A stretch of DNA of 42,248 bases, from positions 1 through 42,248 of the forward strand of contig JAIUOT010000026.1 of NCBI GenBank assembly GCA_020161015.1, written 5' to 3'. The position numbers and the translations under genes are program-made. Below are positions 39 through 20,047 of this stretch, piece after piece (position 1 is the stretch's first letter; each line of letters opens with the position of its first letter). The notes under the pieces are model-generated. The model was not told the origin of the DNA and made no database searches. It saw only the letters and a list, made by a program, of their open reading frames with translations. This DNA is from Actinomycetota bacterium (GTDB lineage Bacteria; Actinomycetota; Actinomycetes; Propionibacteriales; Propionibacteriaceae).

Positions 39-580
39 TGGCACTCGTCGCCCTGTACGACGCGAACGTCCTCTACCCGAACACGCTCCGCGACGTCCTG
101 ATCCGGGTTGCCATGGCCGGACTCGTCCGAGCCCGGTGGACCGACGCGATCCTGGACGAGGTGTTCGAGCACCTGTCGGAGAACCGACCCAACCTGGATC
201 CCGAACGCCTGGACCGCACGCGAATGCTGATGAACAAGGCGATCCGGGACGTCCTCGTGGAAGGCTACGAGCCGCGCATGGCCCGGCTGAAGCTGCCCGA
301 CCCTGACGACCGGCACGTACTCGCCGCTGCGATCCAGGCCAAGGCCTCGATCATCGTGACCAGCAACACCAAGGACTTCCCGACCTCGGTGCTTGATCCC
401 TACGGGATCGTGGCGCAGCATCCCGATGCCTTCCTGCTCGGGTTCTGCGAAGACCACGCGCCCACGCTCCACGCCGTCATCGACGACATCGCGCGCACCT
501 GGAACGATCCCGCCGAGGTCGTGCTCGCCAGCCTGGGCGCCTCTGCTCCCGAAACTGCGGCGAGGCTCGCGTCGCTCTGA
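38..580 (+). CDS. PIN-domain protein, VapC-like toxin candidate
   Basis: This 180-residue protein has the layout of a PIN-domain ribonuclease. It has an N-terminal LYDANVLYP strand with the first acidic residue (D8), a central acidic cluster LPDPDDRHVLAAAI near residue 90, and the TSNTKDFP motif near 110-117. PIN proteins of toxin-antitoxin pairs are Mg-dependent RNases that cut tRNA or mRNA. The start overlaps the stop of the preceding gene, as in co-translated antitoxin-toxin pairs. At 180 residues it is longer than a minimal VapC (about 130), with a C-terminal helical extension after residue 130. It lies about 140 bp from the 3' end of tRNA-Leu on the opposite strand, a usual place for accessory DNA. 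The target is unknown and the partner is not in view. Confidence 0.8.
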   Translation: MALVALYDANVLYPNTLRDVLIRVAMAGLVRARWTDAILDEVFEHLSENRPNLDPERLDRTRMLMNKAIRDVLVEGYEPRMARLKLPDPDDRHVLAAAIQAKASIIVTSNTKDFPTSVLDPYGIVAQHPDAFLLGFCEDHAPTLHAVIDDIARTWNDPAEVVLASLGASAPETAARLASL

Positions 581-4711: not shown

Positions 4712-5941
4712 ATGCGTGCGTGGGTGACCCCCGAACCGCCGGTGCTGCCCGGCTCCGGAAGCGGTCGCGTCCTGCTCCACGACAGCGTGACCGGGATGCT
4801 GCAACCGGCCGGCCCGCTGACCGGAGAGGCACGGCTGTACGCCTGCGGGATCACCCCCTACGACGCGACACACCTCGGCCATGCCGCGACCTACGTGGCG
4901 GTGGACCTGCTCAACCGCGCCTGGCGGGACACGGGGCTGCGGGTGCGCTTCGCGCAGAACGTCACCGACGTGGACGACCCGCTCCTGGAGCGTGCCGCGG
5001 AGACCGGCGTCGACTGGGTCGGGTTGGCCGAGGAGCAGATCGAGCTGTACCGCACGGACATGGCGGCCCTGCGGGTGCTGCCGCCGGACCAGCTCACCGG
5101 GGTGGTGGAGAGCCTGGAGACGGTCACCGACCTGATCGCCGTGCTCCGGGACGAACAGGCCGTCTACCAGGTGCCCGATCCGGTGTACCCGGACTGGTAC
5201 TTCTCGGTGACGCGGGCGAGCAACCTGATGGCCGGCACCGGGATCTCGGTGCTGGAGGCCGAGCAGGTGTTCGCCGAGCGCGGCGGCGACCCGCAGCGTC
5301 CGGGCAAGCGACACCGGCTCGACTGCCTCGTGTGGCGGCAGGCGCGTCCCGGTGAGCCCGCGTGGGACTCCTGGCTCGGGCGTGGACGACCGGGGTGGCA
5401 CGTCGAGTGCACAGCAATCTCGCTCGACGCGCTCGGCCCCGAGTTCGACGTGCAGGCCGGCGGCCGCGACCTCGCCTTCCCGCACCACCCGATGTGCGCG
5501 GCGGAGGCCCGGGTGGCCACCGGGCGGCCGATGGCGAAGGTCTTCCTGCACACCGGGATGGTGGGCCTGGACGGCGAGAAGATGAGCAAGTCGCTGGGCA
5601 ACCTGGTGTTCGTCCGGCGCCTCCTGGACGACGGGGTGGACCCCATGGCCGTCCGGCTCGTGCTGCTCGCCCACCACTACCGCGCCGACTGGGAGTACAC
5701 GCCGGAGGTGCTCGCCGTGGCACTGGAGCGCCTGCACCGCTGGCGCAGCGCAACGTCCGCGTCCGCCGGAGCCGACGCGACCGCGACGCTGGACGCCGTC
5801 CGTGCCGCGCTCCGCAATGACCTCAATGCCCCGGCCGCCCTGGCCGCCATCGACGCCTGGGCCGCAGCCGGCGGCGACGACCCGTCCGCGCCGGCGTTGG
5901 TCGCCGAGGTCGCCGAGGCGCTCCTCGGCATCCGCCTCTGA
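4712..5941 (+). CDS. mshC: Cysteine:GlcN-Ins ligase MshC (mycothiol synthesis)
   Basis: MshC joins L-cysteine to glucosaminyl-inositol using ATP, the third-last chemical step towards mycothiol, the actinobacterial thiol buffer. The 409-residue protein is a shortened cysteinyl-tRNA synthetase homologue: YACGITPYDATHLGHA (zinc Cys and HIGH-type motif), QNVTDVDDPLLERA, WHVECTAIS, AFPHHPMCAAE and KMSKSLGN (KMSKS loop). The C-terminal tRNA-binding domain of CysS is missing, and the WTPE-type N-terminus (WVTPEPP) is typical of MshC rather than CysS. Adjacency to uppP is common in actinomycetes. The start at 4712 is set by the TAGGCT -10 seven bases upstream. Confidence 0.94.
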   Translation: MRAWVTPEPPVLPGSGSGRVLLHDSVTGMLQPAGPLTGEARLYACGITPYDATHLGHAATYVAVDLLNRAWRDTGLRVRFAQNVTDVDDPLLERAAETGVDWVGLAEEQIELYRTDMAALRVLPPDQLTGVVESLETVTDLIAVLRDEQAVYQVPDPVYPDWYFSVTRASNLMAGTGISVLEAEQVFAERGGDPQRPGKRHRLDCLVWRQARPGEPAWDSWLGRGRPGWHVECTAISLDALGPEFDVQAGGRDLAFPHHPMCAAEARVATGRPMAKVFLHTGMVGLDGEKMSKSLGNLVFVRRLLDDGVDPMAVRLVLLAHHYRADWEYTPEVLAVALERLHRWRSATSASAGADATATLDAVRAALRNDLNAPAALAAIDAWAAAGGDDPSAPALVAEVAEALLGIRL

Positions 5942-6042
5942 CGCGGCGCCGCAGCGCTCTGCACCCTCGTCCCCGGTCTCCGTCCGCGTGCAGGGCTGGC
6001 GCGTCCCGAGGCCCGGCGCCTGACGCCGCGGGCCCGCCGTCC

Positions 6043-6157
6043 GTGCCGAGGGCCAGCTCTCCGTGCCGAGGGGGCCAGCTCTCCGTGCCGAGGGCCAGCG
6101 TTGGTGCCGAGGGCCAGCCCCTGTGTGCTGGCTCTCGGCCGTAAGGCTGGTCCTCGG
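6043..6157. repeat. GAGGGCCAGC repeat module, copy 1
   Basis: Four forward copies of GTGCCGAGGGCCAGC (6043, 6063 with a GG insertion, 6085, 6104) are followed by two inverted copies (6127, 6145). GAGGGCCAGC 6109-6118 can pair with GCTGGCTCTC 6127-6136 across the loop CCCTGTGT; one pair is G-U in RNA. Confidence 0.8.
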
Positions 6158-6288
6158 TGGGACGTGGGCGGTTAGGGCGATCCGGCCACGCCCTGGAGCG
6201 AGGGAGGCGGGCGCGCGAGCAGCGGCCTCGCCTCAGGAGCCCGCCTCCGTTCGCCGTCGCAGGTGTCGGGACGCCCGACCGCCCGTTT

Positions 6289-6377
6289 GGAGGGCCAGCC
6301 CTCCGCGTTGAGGGCCAGCGTTGATGCCGAGGGCCAGCCCCTGTGTGCTGGCCCTCGAACGTAAGGCTGGCCCTCGA
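6289..6377. repeat. GAGGGCCAGC repeat module, copy 2
   Basis: Three forward copies (6289, 6308, 6323) and two inverted copies (6347, 6366). Bases 6311-6377 match 6091-6157 at 61 of 67 positions, exactly 220 bp apart. The stem 6329-6338/6347-6356 is a perfect 10-bp hairpin with the same loop as copy 1. Confidence 0.8.
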
Positions 6378-6462
6378 CGCTGGCGGGCATGAGGCGCTGC
6401 GGACGTGAGGCGCCGGCGGACGGGGAGGGGCGGTCCGGGGCCTGCGGCGCTGGACCCGGGCG

Positions 6463-6624
6463 CCTGCCGTGGTGGACCCGGCCGCCGTGGTGGACCCGGC
6501 CGCCGTGGTGGACCCGGCCGCCGTGGTGGACCCGGCCGCCGTGGTGGACCCGGCCGCCGTGGTGGACCCGGCCGCCGTGGTGGACCCGGCCGCCGTGCTG
6601 GACCCGGCCGCCGTGCTGGACCCG
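6463..6624. repeat. 18-bp tandem repeat, nine units
   Basis: Nine head-to-tail 18-bp units of GCCGCCGTGGTGGACCCG. The first is slightly diverged at its 5' end, six are identical, and the last two carry GTGCTG in place of GTGGTG. The unit is a multiple of three, so open frames (VVDPAA in one, VHHGGR in another) run through it by construction; no start, signal or flanking protein supports translation. It ends about 95 bp before the hisE promoter. Such arrays commonly vary in copy number between strains. Confidence 0.9.
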
Positions 6625-6717
6625 GGGGCCCGCCGCGCTGGGTCTGGGCGGCTCGCCGCGCCGGCCCAAGCCGCCCGCCGTGCTGGACCGCGGCTGCCTC
6701 ACCCACGTGGGCACCGG

Positions 6718-6731
6718 TAGGCTGACCGGTC
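6718..6731 (+). promoter_or_regulatory. Candidate leaderless -10 of hisE
   Basis: TAGGCT (6718-6723) followed by eight bases and the GTG of hisE, with no Shine-Dalgarno. It has the same arrangement as tyrS. Confidence 0.6.
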
Positions 6732-6998
6732 GTGAGCAAAACCTTCGATGACCTGTTCGCCGAGTTGCGGCACCGGGCGGCGACCCGCCCCGAGGGCTCC
6801 GGGACGGTCCGCGCCCTCGACGCGGGCGTCCATGCGATCGGCAAGAAGGTCGTCGAGGAGGCCGCGGAGGTCTGGATGGCGGCCGAGTACCAGGGCAAGG
6901 CCGAGGCCGCGGAGGAGATCAGCCAGCTGCTGTACCACCTCCAGGTGCTGATGATCGCGCTCGGCCTCGACCTCGAAGACGTCTACGAATACCTGTGA
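6732..6998 (+). CDS. hisE: Phosphoribosyl-ATP diphosphatase HisE
   Basis: HisE hydrolyses phosphoribosyl-ATP to phosphoribosyl-AMP, the second step of histidine synthesis. The 88-residue all-helical protein has the MazG-like metal site motifs [15 protein letters not shown] and [17 protein letters not shown]. The GTG start is placed by the TAGGCT-N8 promoter. The stop (6996-6998) overlaps the GTG of hisG. As usual in actinomycetes HisE is separate from HisI, and hisE-hisG stand apart from the main his operon. Confidence 0.96.
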
Positions 6999-7870
6999 AC
7001 GGAACAGCGGTGAACGGATCCGACCTGCTCAAGATCGCGGTGCCCAACAAGGGCTCCCTCGCCGAGGCTGCCACCGGCATGCTCCGCGAGGCGGGCTACC
7101 GGCAGCGCCACGACGCCAAGGAACTGGTGCTCGTCGACGACGCCAACGGCGTCGAGTTCTACTACCTGCGTCCCCGTGACATCGCCGTGTACGTGGGGGA
7201 GGGCACCCTCGACCTCGGCATCACCGGACGCGACATGCTGCTCGACTCCGGCGCGGAGGCCGAAGAGGTGATGGCCCTGGGCTTCGGCGGCACCCGGTTC
7301 CGGTTCGCCGCCCCCGGAGGCTCGGGGATGCAGGTCGCCGACCTCGCCGGGCTGCGCATCGCCACCTCCTACCCGGGACTGGTCCGCACCTACCTGGAGA
7401 GCCACGGCGTGTCGGCGCGGCTGATCCACCTCGACGGCGCCGTGGAGAGCTCGGTGCGGCTGGGTGTCGCCGACGTCGTGGCCGATGTCGTCGAGACGGG
7501 GACGACGCTGAAGCGCGCCGGGCTGGAGCTCTTCGGCGACGCGATCCTGGAGTCCGAGGCGATCCTGATCCACCGCAGCGGCGGCGTCCCCCCGGCCGGG
7601 CTCGACCTGCTCCAGCGCCGCCTGAACGGCGTGATCACGGCCCGCGACTACCTGATGGTCGACTACAACGTGCCCCGCGAGCTGCTGGACGCCGCGTGCC
7701 GCGTCACCCCCGGGCTGGACGCGCCGACGGTCTCCCCGCTGGCCAAGGACGGCTGGGTCGCCGTGCGCGCGATGATCCCGGCGAAGGAGGCCCAGCAGAT
7801 CATGGACTCCCTGTGGGACACCGGCGCGGACGCCATCCTGGTCACCAGCATCCACGCCTGCCGCCTGTAG
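6995..7870 (+). CDS. hisG: ATP phosphoribosyltransferase HisG (long form)
   Basis: HisG condenses ATP with PRPP, the committed and histidine-inhibited first step of histidine synthesis. The 291-residue product is the long, HisZ-independent form: a bilobal catalytic region ([39 protein letters not shown]) and a C-terminal ACT-like regulatory domain (about 215-291, ending [11 protein letters not shown]). GTG 6995 overlaps the hisE stop; GTG 7010 is an alternative start five codons in. No transcription gap separates it from hisE. Confidence 0.96.
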
Positions 7871-14977: not shown

Positions 14978-15595
14978 GTGAGCAACACCACCACCGAGAC
15001 CAAGCGGCAGGGGAGCCGCAAGGTCGCAGCCATCCTCGCGGGGGGCCTCGTCCTCGGCGTGGGCACCATGGCGACGCTGGCCTCCTGGAACGACTCGGAG
15101 TACGCCAACGCGACGTTCACCGCCGGCTACTTCAACCTCGAAGGTGCCGTCGACGCCAGCCAGGCGAGCTTCTCGCAGCACTCGACCAGCGGCGCCGCCG
15201 GGGCACTGAGCTTCACCGCCCCCTTCAACAACCTGACCCCGACCGACGTCGTCGCCGCGCCGTACGCGCTCCGCCTCGCCGCCGGCACCACCAACAACGC
15301 GCAGGTGAACCTGGTGGCCTCCACCAACACCGGCACCGTGACCAACCTGACCTACGAGGTCGTGAAGACCGCCACCCCGGGCTGCACCACCAGCACCACC
15401 GGCACCCCGGTCGTCCCGGCCGGCACCGCGATCAACTCCGTGACCGGCGCCTCGTCCTTCACCCTCGCCATGGGTTCACCGACCACCACCGCCGGCGCCC
15501 CCGCCTACCTGTGCTTCAAGGTGACCGCCGGCAGCGGCCTCGCCCAGAGCCAGACCGGCAGCGTCACCTGGCAGTTCCAGGCCGTCTCGCAGTAA
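14978..15595 (+). CDS. Small exported protein with SipW-type signal peptide
   Basis: The 205-residue protein has a basic N-terminus (KRQGSRK), a hydrophobic stretch at 16-34 and then ATLASWNDSEYANATFTAG. This is the SipW-dependent type of signal, in which cleavage lies near ATLA/S rather than at a classical AXA followed by mature acidic sequence. The mature part is Thr/Ser/Ala-rich and predicted all-beta, with two cysteines (C136, C179) able to form a disulfide. TasA and camelysin are known proteins with this kind of signal, TasA being a fibre-forming matrix protein. The mature part cannot be assigned to a family by eye. The next gene encodes a matching signal peptidase. The start is GTG with AAAGGG upstream. 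Confidence 0.85.
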   Translation: MSNTTTETKRQGSRKVAAILAGGLVLGVGTMATLASWNDSEYANATFTAGYFNLEGAVDASQASFSQHSTSGAAGALSFTAPFNNLTPTDVVAAPYALRLAAGTTNNAQVNLVASTNTGTVTNLTYEVVKTATPGCTTSTTGTPVVPAGTAINSVTGASSFTLAMGSPTTTAGAPAYLCFKVTAGSGLAQSQTGSVTWQFQAVSQ

Positions 15596-15630: not shown

Positions 15631-15664
15631 CCCGGTCAGGTTCGCCGCCGCGAACCTGACCGGG
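15631..15664 (+). terminator. 15-bp hairpin between genes 1 and 2 of the secretion operon
   Basis: CCCGGTCAGGTTCGC (15631-15645) pairs perfectly with 15650-15664 around CGCC. It stands 35 bp after the first stop and 28 bp before the second start, with no T-run. It could partially terminate or protect the upstream mRNA 3' end, giving more substrate than peptidase. Confidence 0.7.
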
Positions 15665-15692: not shown

Positions 15693-16934
15693 ATGGCCAG
15701 TGATCGACCCCGCAGGGCCGTCGAGAGCTCGCCGTCGCGCGCCCTCAGCGGTGGCCTCGCGGCCGTCGGCCGGCGCATCGTGGATGTGCTGCTGTGGACG
15801 CTGGGCGCCCTCGGCGCCGCCAGCATCGTCGCGGCCCTCGCCGCGCACCTGTGGGGCTTCTCGATCATCCTGTTCTCCACCGGCTCGATGGCGCCGACGA
15901 TCCCCGCGGGGTCGGCTGCGCTCGTCCGGCTGGTCCCGGCCGCCGACCTCGCCGTCGGTGATGTGACCACGGTGGAGCGCCCGGGCCAGCTGCCCATCAC
16001 GCACCGGATCACCTCCCTCGAGCCGCTTCCCGGCTCGCCGTCGTCCCGCGTGATCACCATGCGCGGCGACGCCAACGCGGTCGACGACCCGGAGCCCTAC
16101 GTCATCAACGACGCCCGCATCGTGCTGGCGTCGATGCCCGGTGTGGCGACCTGGTTCGCCAACCTGCGTGACCCCCGGCTGATGGGTCTGATGACCCTCC
16201 TGGCCGGCGCCCTGGTCACCTGGGCGTTCTGGCCGCGGCAGGCACGCCGCGCCACCATCATCGCTGCCGCGGCCGTCGTCGCCGGCTCCCAGGTCCTGGG
16301 CGCCACCGAGGCGCAGGCCGCGGAGACCGAGTACCAGGTGGTGGGCCAGCACCTGGTACTCACGATCGTCTCCGACGAGGAGAAGATGTCGTCGATGGTC
16401 CCCAGGGAGCGGGTGCTCTGGCAGATCGGAGTGGACACCAGGGGTGACGAGGAGGGTGCGGTGCACATCGGGCTCGGCGTCGCCGCCGGTTCCGTCGCCG
16501 CCGACGCCCTGCGCGTCGACGTCCTCGCCTGCCCGGAGCGCTGGCAGGGCGAGACCTGCAACGGTGCTGCCGAGAGCTGGGTCAACGACACCCCCCTCGA
16601 CCAGGCCTTCCTGCCCGCCACCCACGGTGACACCCGCGAACTGGGCGTCACCCCGGCCGGTGACCCGGTGTGGGTGCAGGTGCGCGCCACGCTCGCCCGG
16701 CAGGAGGAGAACGTCAACGCCACGCTCCGGGTGGACGCCTGGGGCGCCGGCGAGGTCGTCAGTGCCGAGACCGACGGCGGAGGCAAGGGCCACGGCAACG
16801 GCCTGGCCTACACCGGCGCGGACGGCATTCCCCAGACGCTGGCCCTCGCGGGGGCCGCGATCGGTACCGGGCTGGTGGTGGCCCGGCTCGCCGGCGGGCG
16901 CCGGCGGGACGCCGACCGGGAGGTAGCGCAGTGA
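15693..16934 (+). CDS. SipW/ER-type signal peptidase fused to a sortase-signal exported domain
   Basis: The 413-residue protein has two parts. Residues 1-160 form a type I signal peptidase of the SipW/ER class: a membrane segment (about 30-60), FSTGSMAPTIPAG with nucleophile S65, THR with H104 in place of the bacterial lysine, and RGDAN with D126. A second hydrophobic segment (163-180) and a third (187-203) follow. The third is preceded by RQARR and ends in ATEAQA/AETE, which looks like an internal signal-peptide cleavage site after A209. Residues 210-365 form a predicted beta-rich exported domain with a Cys pair (C280, C289). The C-terminus has LAYTG (371-375), a hydrophobic stretch and GRRR, a typical sortase signal; class E sortases prefer LAXTG. 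The gene overlaps the next by GTGA. Confidence 0.88.
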   Translation: MASDRPRRAVESSPSRALSGGLAAVGRRIVDVLLWTLGALGAASIVAALAAHLWGFSIILFSTGSMAPTIPAGSAALVRLVPAADLAVGDVTTVERPGQLPITHRITSLEPLPGSPSSRVITMRGDANAVDDPEPYVINDARIVLASMPGVATWFANLRDPRLMGLMTLLAGALVTWAFWPRQARRATIIAAAAVVAGSQVLGATEAQAAETEYQVVGQHLVLTIVSDEEKMSSMVPRERVLWQIGVDTRGDEEGAVHIGLGVAAGSVAADALRVDVLACPERWQGETCNGAAESWVNDTPLDQAFLPATHGDTRELGVTPAGDPVWVQVRATLARQEENVNATLRVDAWGAGEVVSAETDGGGKGHGNGLAYTGADGIPQTLALAGAAIGTGLVVARLAGGRRRDADREVAQ

Positions 16935-19900
16935 GGAGGGGTCTGCGCTACCTCCCGGCTTCCCCCAGGAAGGGACGCCGGCGGATCGCCGCGCTCGGAC
17001 TCGGCGTGCTGGCCGCGCTGTCCCTGACCTGGCAGCAGCAGGCCACGCTGGCCAGCTACGTCGACGTGGAGTTCGCCAAGGCCAGCTTCAGCGCGGCCAC
17101 CCTGGACGCCATCGCGCCGACCTTCACCACGACCGCCGCGACCGCGACCGCCTCCTGGGACGCGGCGGACGGCGACTGGGCGACTCCGGACTACGTGCTC
17201 ACGGGCGCGACGACCTCCACCGGCGGCAACGCCGCCCAGGTCTACGCCGGCCCGGACCTGACCGCCACCCAGACCGTCGGCGGGACGTCCACCACCGCAG
17301 CCCTCGACCTCACCGACATCTCCGCCGGCGGCACCCACGCGTGCGGCATCGCCCGCGGGCAGGCCTACTGCTGGGGCACCAACGCCAACGGCGCGCTCGG
17401 CCTCGGCTCCACCACCTCGACGAACACGCCCACCGCGGTCGGCGGCGCCCTGGCCGGCAAGACCGTCTCCGACGTCAGCGCGGGCACCGACCACACCTGT
17501 GCGGTCGCCGAGGGCGTCGCCTACTGCTGGGGCAACGTCGGGAACGGACGGACCGGCACCGGCGCGGGCGCCAACCTGACGACGCCGACCGCCGTGACGG
17601 CGTCCGGCGTGCTGGCCGGCAAGAAGGTCACTGCGATCTCTGCCGGCGGCTCCCACACCTGCGCCGTCGCTGCGGGCGCGGCCTACTGCTGGGGCCTCAA
17701 CACCAACGGCCAGCTCGGCGACTCCAGCACCACCCAGCGCACGGCCCCGGTGGCCGTGACGGCGTCCGGGGTGCTCTCCGGCCGCACGGTGACCGGGATC
17801 TCCGCGGGCAACGCCCACAGCTGCGCGGTGGCCGACGGGCTGGCGTTCTGCTGGGGCCTGAACACCAACAGCCGTCTCGGCGACGGCTCGACGACCCAGC
17901 GCACGGCCCCTGTGGCCGTCACGGCCACCGGCGTGCTGGCGGGACGCACCGTGACCGCGGTCTCCGCGGGCAACGCCCACAGCTGCGCGGTGGCCGACGC
18001 CCTGGCGTTCTGCTGGGGGCTCAACACCAACGGACGCCTCGGCGACGGCACGACGACCCAGCGCTCCACCCCGGTGGCCGTGGTCGGGACGGTCGCCGCC
18101 GCGGGATCGGTCACGGCCGTCTCGGCCGGCAACACGCACTCCTGTGCGATCGCCGACGGTGCCGCCCACTGTTGGGGGGCCGGTGGCTCCGGGCAGGTGG
18201 GCAACGGCTCCACCACCGCGAGCGTCACGACGCCGGTCGCCGTGACCGCCAGCGGCGTCCTGTCCGGGCGCACCCTCACCTCGATCAGCGCGGGCACCAC
18301 CTTCACCTGCGCGACCGGGGCGACCCCCGGCGCCTGCTGGGGCCTGGGCACCAGCGGCCAGCTCGGCAACAAGGCCTCCTCGACCTCCACGACCCCGGTC
18401 ACCGTCGCGATCACCGGCCCGGTGTGCGCGGACGGGTCGGTGCGCCTCAGCGCCACCGACTGCTCGCTCGCGCAGGGCACCGACTACTGGGGCCGGCTCG
18501 GCTACGGCATCGGCACGTGGACGGCCCCGAACAGCGGCTGGGTGAAGGCGACCACCAAGATCCGGGACGCCGTCAGCCCGTCCGCCACCGCGAAGACCAG
18601 CACCTCGCTCACCCTGGGCTGGGACGCGGTCAGCGAGCTGTCCCAGTCCTACGCCGAGTACACCGTGCAGCGGTCCACCAGCTCCAGTGGCTCCAGCCCG
18701 GTCACCGTCTACAAGGGCGGGCTCCGCTCCGTCCTCGACCGCGGTGGGCTGCCCAAGCGCACCACGACCGTCGACGTCGGCCTGGTCAGCGCGGGCGGCG
18801 ACCACAGCTGCGCGATCCTCGAAGGCGCGGCCTACTGCTGGGGCGACAACACCAACGGCGAGCTGGGCACCGGCTCCACCACCGCCTCGACCTCCCCGAC
18901 GGCCGTGGTCGACACCGGCGTGCTCGCAGGCAGGACGGTCACCTCGATCTCCGCAGCCATGGACAACGGCGGCGACAACGGCGAGCACACCTGCGCGGTT
19001 GCCGACGGCGGCGTCTACTGCTGGGGCCTCAACACCAACGGCGAGCTGGGCGACGGCACGACCAGCCAGCGCACCTCTCCGGTCCAGGCCGGCACGATCA
19101 CCGATGCGGTCCAGGTGACCACCGGCTACATGCACTCCTGCGCACTGACCGGTGCCGGCCAGGTGTACTGCTGGGGCGACAACACCCGCGGGCAGCTCGG
19201 CGACGGCAGCACCACCCAGCGCAACAGCCCCGTGCTCGTCCAGGGCGTGCTGGCGGGCAAGAACGTGACCGAGATCTCGGCCGGCGCAGCCCACACCTGC
19301 GCGGTCGCCGACGGCGCCTCCTACTGCTGGGGCTCGAACGTGTCCGGCCAGCTGGGCATCAACTCCAGCGGCTCCGGGACGAACAGCAGTGTCCCCGTCG
19401 CCACGCTGACCAGCGGAGTGCTCAATGGCCAGACTGTCACCGAGGTCGCCGCCGGCGAGGCACACACCTGCGTGATCGCGGGCGGCAAGGCCTACTGCTG
19501 GGGCTACAACAACAACGGCCAGCTGGGCAACAGCAGCACCGCGCTGAGCACGGTCCCCGTGGCCGTGAACACATCCTGGACCGCGGGCGCCGGCCTCAGC
19601 AGCCTGACCGCGGGGATGTACCACACCTGCATCGTGGCCTCCGGCAAGGCGTACTGCTGGGGCGACAACGCCAACGGCCAGGTCGGCGACGGCAGCACCA
19701 CCGACCGCACCGCCCCCGTCGCGGTGACCGCGAGCGGCGCACTGTCCGGCACCGTGAGCCAGGTCAGTGCAGGTGAGCTGCACACCTGCGCGGTTTCCGG
19801 CACCTCGGCGTACTGCTGGGGCTCCAACACCAACGGCCAGGTCGGCGACGGCAGCACGACCCAGCGGAGCGCCCCGGTCGCCGTCCAGACGGTCGCCGGA

Positions 19901-20047
19901 GCGCCCTGCGCCACCGGTGCCTCCCTGATCACCCCGTCGACCTGCTCGCTCGCCCCGGGCACCACCTACTACTACCGGGTGAAGTTCACCGTCGACGGCG
20001 CGATCACCACGACCAGCGACTGGGTCGGCATCAAGACCAGCAGCTAG
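16931..20047 (+). CDS. Secreted two-propeller RCC1/FnIII protein
   Basis: The 1038-residue product starts at a GTG overlapping the previous stop. It opens with a basic SipW-type signal ([15 protein letters not shown], then [18 protein letters not shown]), matching that of the first operon gene. A FnIII-like segment (about 70-126) is followed by seven RCC1 blades (about 127-496). A Cys pair C499/C511 precedes [15 protein letters not shown], the expected last strands of FnIII. A second FnIII start (about 555-616) leads to seven more blades (about 617-990), Cys pair C993/C1005 and [18 protein letters not shown]. Each blade repeats H[TS]CA...YCWG..N.G.LG, giving a likely disulfide per blade. RCC1 propellers bind proteins in other systems; adhesion or ligand binding here is inference. 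No sortase signal is seen at its own C-terminus. Confidence 0.88.
17320..19890 (+). repeat. Coding repeats of the RCC1 blades
   Basis: Fourteen units of about 150-165 bp encode the propeller blades in two groups of seven. Neighbouring units, especially between 17690 and 18100, are nearly identical in DNA, for example the recurring CAGCGCACGGCCCC. This makes the region prone to recombination and to assembly error. Confidence 0.85.

What the first reader, a model, noticed from the sequence alone, without database searches (positions are those of the whole stretch)
15693..16934. Signal peptidase fused to its own exported, sortase-type domain
The Ser65-His104-Asp126 peptidase part is followed by a signal-peptide-like segment (RQARR, hydrophobic run, ATEAQA/AE), a beta-rich domain, then LAYTG, a hydrophobic stretch and GRRR. 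LAXTG is the preference reported for class E sortases. One reading is a polyprotein: the peptidase cuts after A209 and releases a domain that a sortase links to the wall. Another is that the peptidase itself is wall- or membrane-tethered at both ends, placing it at the assembly site.
Basis: partly seen in the sequence, partly recalled or inferred. Interest (0 to 1): 0.75.

Follow-up and report, generated by a model that had tools for sequence, protein, structure and literature searches.

The report
Signal peptidase fused to wall-anchored protein
One gene encodes both a specialised protein-trimming enzyme and a separate surface protein that seems destined to be cut off and fastened to the cell wall, a pairing that recurs across many soil and water bacteria.

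Summary
Window 15693-16934 encodes a 413-aa protein with four parts: a SipW-type signal peptidase; an internal signal-peptide-like segment ending AQA|AE; a predicted beta-sandwich; and LAYTG + hydrophobic stretch + RRR. It is no artefact: six other genomes of the genus carry it at 64-79% identity, and 64 of 79 distinct loci of a named-genome scan (biased towards fusions) share the architecture. In a class-wide draw of 394 genomes, 5 have it as one ORF and 6 as a separate neighbouring gene. The separate genes in five Microbacterium loci and on an Arthrobacter plasmid begin with an ordinary-looking signal peptide and end in LxxTG. The -3/-1 alanines and LxxTG are conserved. The genome has one detected sortase, class E. 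Best reading: a polyprotein whose C-terminal half is released by a signal peptidase and wall-anchored by SrtE, within a TasA/camelysin-like operon. The passenger may be a remote TasA relative, so a wall-bound base or assembly factor for SipW-exported subunits is plausible. Cleavage, anchoring and function are inferred, not shown.

The parts
15693..16934 (+). 413-aa fused protein: SipW-type signal peptidase + exported, sortase-sorted passenger
   Evidence: One ORF without internal stop; homologues over its whole length in six other genomes of the genus
15693..16235 (+). Peptidase half (res. 1-181): TM helix 20-54, catalytic S65/H104/D126, second TM 161-179 ending WAFWP
   Evidence: TIGR02228 E 1.2e-10, 41.5 bits (below cut-off 51.85), NF046067 SipW E 4.2e-5; AF2 model helices; Foldseek hit to human signal peptidase complex 7p2q_A at rank 10, E 1e-3; invariant residues
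16236..16319 (+). Internal signal-peptide-like segment (res. 182-209), RQARR + hydrophobic + ATEAQA; predicted cut after A209
   Evidence: A207 and A209 invariant in 12 diverse rows including a stand-alone protein; 50/59 and 44/59 in the 63-row set; not of SipW type
16320..16802 (+). Passenger beta-sandwich (res. 210-370) with invariant W243, C280, C289
   Evidence: AF2 block means of pLDDT 88-98 over the first 150 residues of the passenger model; invariant columns; no Pfam match at E 0.1 for the window's own passenger
16803..16931 (+). Sorting signal: LAYTG, hydrophobic stretch, RRR tail (res. 371-413)
   Evidence: Conserved LxxTG; some relatives match LPXTG/LAXTG anchor models, the window's own tail does not (E 0.1 Pfam, E 0.01 NCBIfam)
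14978..15595 (+). Upstream SipW-dependent-type protein, 205 aa, presumably TasA/camelysin-like
   Evidence: TIGR04088 35.2 bits, above cut-off 19; weak PF12389 camelysin and TasA matches below cut-off
16931..20047 (+). Downstream 1038-aa RCC1-repeat protein, GTG start overlapping the stop of the fusion gene (GTGA), SipW-type N-terminus
   Evidence: RCC1 repeats, PF00415; SipW-type signal profile 50.2 bits
15631..15664 (+). 15-bp hairpin between the SipW-substrate gene and the fusion gene
   Evidence: z-score -5.97 for the intergenic stretch; predicted stems also in the 110 bases before the peptidase start of 13 other loci, no shuffles made there

Best explanation
The gene makes a membrane-threaded polyprotein. 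The N-terminal half is the operon's dedicated SipW-type signal peptidase, which trims the neighbouring TasA/camelysin-like and RCC1 SipW-type proteins. After its second membrane helix the chain is back in the cytoplasm (RQARR) and re-enters the membrane as an internal signal peptide. That is cut after AQA (A209), freeing the second half: a perhaps TasA-related beta-sandwich that class E sortase then fixes to the cell wall through LAYTG. The wall-bound product probably serves as base, nucleator or assembly factor for the SipW-exported subunits, as TapA and CapP do in Bacillus. Shown here: architecture, conservation, operon, presence of srtE, separate-gene forms. Inferred: topology, the cut, the anchoring, the role. 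Open: whether the cutter is the attached SipW-type peptidase (about 1 in 3 in my view) or another type I peptidase of the cell.
For: (a) 64 of 79 distinct named-genome loci hold both halves in one ORF; six of these 64 are the same-genus genomes. (b) The same passenger is a separate gene in 5 Microbacterium loci and on an Arthrobacter plasmid, with its own signal peptide (four AWA|AP, one ASA|AP; ANA|Q) and LATTG, LPATG or LADTG, and a separate ORF in 6 of 12 matched genomes of a 394-genome class draw: it need not stay joined to the enzyme. In that draw, 11 of 11 loci picked by the passenger profile (own not re-run) have a peptidase match in or beside it. (c) -3/-1 Ala conserved in fused forms and a stand-alone one while the hydrophobic core drifts. 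(d) LxxTG conserved; class E sortase over cut-off in 50 of 50 genomes tested (49 fused loci plus L121) and matched in all 7 fused genomes of the genus, one partial. (e) Longer ORFs (SipW-type protein + peptidase + passenger, or peptidase + passenger + SipW-type protein) make sense mainly if the chain is cut. (f) The passenger profile matches a TasA-like protein beside another peptidase (93% probability, E 3.6e-7); TasA fibre 8aur is Foldseek rank 2 (E 2.2e-4, TM 0.42).
Against: No experiment. AxA is only modestly above a composition-preserving shuffle. The junction is not of SipW type (nor does any fused ORF match the SipW-signal profile at E 0.01 at its junction), which speaks against cutting by SipW. 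The passenger is absent from 8 peptidase loci of the same genus (one of them, L079, lies in a genome that also has the fused gene), 7 of which keep SipW-type neighbours, so it is not needed for a SipW operon. TasA kinship is remote: against 38 neighbouring SipW substrates the profile comparison gives 3.8% probability, E 0.011; the Foldseek TM-scores are low and a staphylococcal adhesin ranks first. The window's own tail reaches no anchor model. Class E sortase is found in most genomes of the genus with or without the fusion, so its presence only permits the pathway.
Confidence: 0.66

Rival explanations
1. The chain stays uncut: the peptidase is held by its own helices and its C-terminal domain is covalently joined to the wall, parking the enzyme at the wall-membrane interface.
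For: One continuous ORF with no ATG, GTG or TTG codon between residues 168 and 213 of the window protein; the sorting signal alone would suffice for linkage.
Against: Conserved -3/-1 alanines at the junction; the same passenger occurs as a separate protein; several species of the genus lack it while keeping the peptidase.
Confidence: 0.15
2. The passenger is cut free and wall-anchored but has no link to filament assembly; the fusion is only an accident of a tightly overlapping operon.
For: Genes of this operon overlap (GTGA) and are joined in several different ways; the passenger is absent in part of the genus.
Against: By motif, 54 of the 64 fused loci and 5 of 5 split loci have a SipW-type gene within the fetched stretch (no false-positive control for the motif), and the passenger may be remotely TasA-like.
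Confidence: 0.14
3. The C-terminal half is a membrane-bound helper domain for the peptidase (substrate presentation), and LAYTG is not used.
For: In 11 of 11 loci picked by the passenger profile in a class draw, a peptidase match lies in or beside it.
Against: LxxTG is among its best-conserved features, class E sortase was found in 50 of 50 genomes tested, and a close peptidase relative occurs without the domain (L064, 71% identical).
Confidence: 0.05

Closest known systems
SipW / TasA / TapA system of Bacillus subtilis (and SipW-TasA-CalY-CapP of B. cereus)
   Same: Dedicated signal peptidase in an operon with its beta-rich, self-assembling substrates. TapA (its gene overlaps sipW) and CapP (wall-located by its C-domain) are assembly factors (PMC10151520 and PMC13082335, passages read).
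   Different: Here the extra protein is fused to the peptidase, carries a sortase signal, and its signal segment is not of the SipW type of its neighbours. The B. cereus system is described as sortase-independent.
Class E sortase substrates (LAXTG proteins such as chaplins of Streptomyces coelicolor)
   Same: LAXTG sorting signal; class E sortase in the genome (PMC5148588, abstract and passages).
   Different: Those are, from recall, separate proteins with their own N-terminal signal peptide; here the signal lies inside a peptidase fusion.
Signal-peptidase-like SipA of Streptococcus pyogenes pilus assembly
   Same: A signal-peptidase-like protein needed for sortase-built surface fibres (PMC4049620, title and start of abstract in a search listing only).
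   Different: Our peptidase keeps Ser-His-Asp in all 63 aligned fusions and sits beside SipW-type substrates.
Clostridium perfringens sipW-bsaA operon
   Same: sipW beside a putative sortase gene (srtB) (PMC7395162, passages).
   Different: There the sortase was not needed for BsaA polymers and BsaA has no predicted LPXTG; no fusion is mentioned in the passages read.

Membership tests
SipW/ER-type signal peptidase (S26B) | Catalytic Ser and His (not Lys), with Asp | tested here: met
SipW/ER-type signal peptidase (S26B) | Family profile score over curated cut-off | tested here: inconclusive
   TIGR02228 41.5 bits vs cut-off 51.85, E 1.2e-10; all 63 aligned rows match at E 0.01
SipW/ER-type signal peptidase (S26B) | Operon with SipW-dependent-type substrates | tested here: met
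   TIGR04088 above cut-off upstream; SipW-type N-termini in 68 of 79 loci by motif
Bacillus SipW equivalog (NF046067) | Score over 190 bits | tested here: not met
   23.2 bits
Sortase-anchored surface protein | LxxTG + hydrophobic stretch + basic tail at C-terminus | tested here: met
   Window 371-413; 53 of 65 by a strict rule; the 12 misses are itemised in the full report
Sortase-anchored surface protein | Curated anchor model match | tested here: not met
   Window protein matches none; relatives do: PF00746 in 10 of 68 (E 0.1), NF058582 in 9, TIGR01167 in 3 of 63 (E 0.01)
Class E sortase pathway | Class E sortase in the genome | tested here: met
   252.9 bits vs cut-off 160, only sortase found at E 1e-3
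Class E sortase pathway | Covalent attachment to the wall | not testable with these tools
   Needs wall fractionation
TasA/camelysin family (passenger) | SipW-type signal peptide | tested here: not met
   Profile score 2.7 bits at the junction
TasA/camelysin family (passenger) | Sequence or fold kinship | tested here: inconclusive
   93% vs one TasA-like protein, 3.8% vs 38 operon substrates; Foldseek TasA fibre rank 2, TM 0.42
Self-processing polyprotein | Cut between the halves, by the attached enzyme | not testable with these tools
   Site conserved, enzyme identity open

The most novel reading that the evidence does not exclude
A self-processing bacterial polyprotein. A SipW-type signal peptidase cuts its own C-terminal, TasA-like passenger out in cis. 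Class E sortase then fixes that passenger to the wall, where it is the covalent base of a strand-exchange (TasA/camelysin-type) filament. This would be a hybrid of two fibre systems so far treated as separate, with enzyme, anchor and in some species the filament subunit made as one chain in fixed ratio.
Probability: 0.25. Interest if true: 0.82.

Novelty: new variant of a known kind. Interest (0 to 1): 0.6.

Why it matters
The TasA/CalY filament system of B. cereus is described as sortase-independent (PMC13082335, passages). A widespread actinobacterial version in which the dedicated signal peptidase and a sortase-anchored, perhaps TasA-related protein are one gene product would tie the two pathways together. 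It would also give directly testable predictions in culturable genera (Plantibacter, Mycetocola, Leucobacter, Microbacterium). The one such protein whose public annotation I saw (WP_160679752.1) is named only 'signal peptidase I', so the second half goes unseen there.

Tried and rejected
Rejected: assembly or frameshift artefact (six other genomes of the genus have the full ORF). Rejected: that the second half is a sortase or carries a named domain (Pfam at E 0.1 gave only the LPXTG anchor and four scattered families in 1-2 of 68 rows; NCBIfam matches outside the peptidase are anchor, surface-protein or C-terminal signal models). Rejected as a general rule: internal translation start (37 of 63 fused loci have no in-frame ATG/GTG/TTG in the linker, 26 have one or more; none at residues 168-213 in the window, the nearest being ATG at 164 and 167). 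Weak: AxA enrichment by shuffling; passenger profile against neighbouring substrates; PDB sequence search with the passenger profile gave only two unrelated chains at E 0.29 and 0.35. The full-length model (pTM 0.56) is too uncertain between domains to judge cleavage in cis. Not possible: second structural aligner.

Literature: five searches combining SipW with Actinobacteria/TasA, with fused/LPXTG, with camelysin/Micrococcales, with sortase, or 'SipW-dependent' with Microbacterium, one combining signal peptidase, LPXTG motif, fusion and Actinobacteria and one with polyprotein and self-cleaving (10 of 23 papers listed) gave no title or start of abstract on such a fusion. Only open-licence papers are held; of the papers listed there I read passages of three. 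PMC5148588 came from a class E sortase search.

By eye only: C-terminal SipW-like passengers on peptidases of L020, L022-L024, L027, L096 (1929-3170), L121, L147 and L148. They do not reach E 0.01 with my SipW-signal profile; L025 does weakly (E 0.0024).

Full report
What is there. Window 15693-16934 (+) is one open frame of 413 codons. Residues 1-181 resemble ER-type/SipW signal peptidases: TIGR02228 E 1.2e-10 (41.5 bits, under its 51.85 cut-off) and NF046067 E 4.2e-5. Foldseek with the AF2 model of the full protein lists the human signal peptidase complex at rank 10, E 1e-3. After the second membrane helix come RQARR, a hydrophobic run and ATEAQA|AE, then about 160 residues of predicted beta-sandwich (block means of pLDDT 88-98 over the first 150 residues of the passenger model), then LAYTG, a hydrophobic stretch and RRR. 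Topology by the positive-inside rule (general knowledge): active site outside, RQARR inside, passenger outside, RRR inside.

Setting. Upstream (14978-15595) is a 205-aa protein with a SipW-dependent signal (TIGR04088 35.2 bits, cut-off 19). Downstream, with GTGA overlap, is a 1038-aa RCC1-repeat protein. Both flanking proteins score well on a SipW-signal profile made from other loci (77.8 and 50.2 bits); the fusion's junction does not (2.7 bits). The genome has one sortase detected by PF04203, of class E, and three matches to Peptidase_S26 (PF10502) over cut-off on other contigs, which I take to include the housekeeping signal peptidase. Titles of the closest named records include Propionicimonas sp. 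and Propionibacteriaceae, so the window very likely belongs to Propionicimonas or close kin.

Conservation in the genus and family. Among 96 genomes (own included), six others of the genus have the protein over its whole length at 65-79% identity in the genome search, 64-79% in the alignment; their sorting motifs read LAYTG, LAHTG, LAYTG, LANTG, LAYTG, LAFTG. In 198 family genomes, 18 match the passenger profile at E 1e-3. Ten of these are strong (E below 1e-60) and all ten are fused: the window, the six, and G031, G050 and G228 of other genera. The other matches are weak (E 2e-6 or worse) and were not examined. Eight peptidase loci of the genus lack the passenger (L064, L079, L081, L092, L101, L102, L104, L116); L079 lies in the genome of G018, which also has the fused gene. 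L064, whose peptidase falls inside the fused group on the tree, ends in the same EVAQ as the window protein and is followed directly by an RCC1-type gene, as if the passenger had been lost from inside the gene; no passenger was found elsewhere in that genome, G022.

Survey. A named-genome scan found 302 relatives, of which the best 80 were kept; ranking by likeness to a fused query favours fusions, and six of the 80 are the same-genus genomes already counted. L068 and L069 are duplicates, leaving 79. Of these, 64 hold peptidase and passenger in one ORF (63 by profile, L119 on reading), 5 (all Microbacterium) hold them as two overlapping or adjacent genes, and 10 lack the passenger. They span Propionibacteriaceae, Microbacteriaceae, Micrococcaceae, Brevibacterium, Nakamurella and Micromonospora. 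A draw of 394 genomes of the class, searched with the passenger profile, is less biased: 12 match at E 1e-8. Five are one ORF (the window, L140, L141, L144, L145; in L141 only part of the peptidase is matched), six are a separate ORF beside the peptidase (L139, L142, L143, L146, L147, L148), and one (L149) is itself a TasA-like protein beside a peptidase. An Arthrobacter plasmid also has the split form, the two genes overlapping by 14 bases. On a quick peptidase tree, split loci nest among fused ones in two places; three labels need 5 changes against 14.5 in shuffles. The root, and so gain versus loss, is not known.

The junction and the sorting signal. In 12 diverse passengers including a stand-alone one, the invariant residues near the predicted cut are the -3 and -1 alanines. 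In 63 fusions A207 is Ala in 50 and A209 in 44 of 59 ungapped rows while 208 varies; L371, T374 and G375 hold in 56, 59 and 62 of 63, and 372 is A in 35 and P in 24. AxA within 16 residues after the core: 60 of 65, 47.1 expected from shuffles, so composition explains much of it. A strict LxxTG + hydrophobic + basic rule is met in 53 of 65. The 12 misses: I or V for L (L077, L083, L089, L094, and L128, which also runs off its contig), S for T (L071, L135), a longer tail (L085), a contig end (L109), a stop near a contig end with no sorting signal (L093), and two triple ORFs in which the motif lies inside (L095, L107). Some relatives match curated anchor models (PF00746 10 of 68 at E 0.1; NF058582 9, NF058583 5, TIGR01167 3 of 63 at E 0.01), the window protein itself none. 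Class E sortase is over cut-off in 25 of 30 genomes of the genus, and all 7 fused ones have a match, one cut by a contig edge and under the cut-off. It is over cut-off in 50 of 50 genomes of the survey tested, 49 of them with the fusion. As class E sortase is common here with or without the fusion, its presence permits but does not prove the pathway.

Longer chains. A Pseudarthrobacter plasmid ORF joins a SipW-type protein, the peptidase and the passenger. Zimmermannella faecalis L107, and L095 (which holds an ambiguous base), join peptidase, passenger and a SipW-type protein. Other peptidases seem by eye to carry a SipW-like passenger directly. Such chains are hard to understand unless they are cut.

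What the passenger is. No Pfam family describes it. Its profile matches the TasA-like L149 protein (hhalign 92.9%, E 3.6e-7; HMM 36.8 bits, none of 2000 shuffles reported), which itself matches NF046066 TasA weakly (E 1.5e-4, 21.3 bits against a cut-off of 450). Against 38 aligned operon substrates the match is not significant (3.8%, E 0.011), though seven individual neighbours pass HMMER's inclusion threshold, best E 1.3e-5. Foldseek places a TasA fibre second (E 2.2e-4, TM 0.42) behind a staphylococcal adhesin; the TM-scores are low. I call it a possible distant TasA-like beta-sandwich, not a member.

Mechanism. I favour a polyprotein cut at A209, with the passenger anchored by SrtE and acting as base or assembly factor for the SipW-exported subunits, by analogy with TapA and CapP (passages). 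LAXTG as the class E signal is from PMC5148588 (abstract and passages). The cutter is open: the site reads as an ordinary type I site, so I give the attached peptidase about one chance in three. The passenger is dispensable for SipW operons as such: 7 of the 8 passenger-less loci of the genus keep SipW-type neighbours.

Novelty. Searches of the held open-licence papers listed nothing on a SipW-sortase-substrate fusion; most subscription papers, and preprints, are not held. It is a new variant of the SipW/TasA kind.

Noticed in passing
window 15631-15664: A perfect 15-bp hairpin without a T-run between the SipW-substrate gene and the fusion gene (z -5.97). Predicted stems (longest run 6 to 18 pairs) also lie in the 110 bases before the peptidase start of 13 other loci of the genus, without shuffle controls; perhaps control of the subunit-to-enzyme ratio.
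   Followed up: partly
window 16931-20047: A 1038-aa RCC1-repeat protein with a SipW-type N-terminus follows the fusion gene; long SipW-type ORFs follow the peptidase in several other loci of the genus.
   Followed up: no
L107:4897-6684, L037:5272-7119, L095:2274-4103: Triple ORFs joining SipW-type protein, peptidase and sorted passenger in different orders.
   Followed up: partly
L147:1435-2040 and L148:772-2097 (coordinates on the reverse complement): LPDTG-bearing passenger ORFs with no visible signal peptide, following an ORF that by eye joins the peptidase to a SipW-like protein.
   Followed up: partly
L078:2743-4047 and 5821-7182: Two tandem copies of the fused gene, with SipW-type neighbours, in one Glaciihabitans MAG.
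   Followed up: no
L153, L154, L155 (own genome contigs C54, C37, C38): LAVTG-type anchor model matches in very long open frames (2632, 4985, 2860 aa); only the first is over the cut-off, and at this loose threshold the model also rings in 11 of 14 control genomes; possible further sortase substrates.
   Followed up: no
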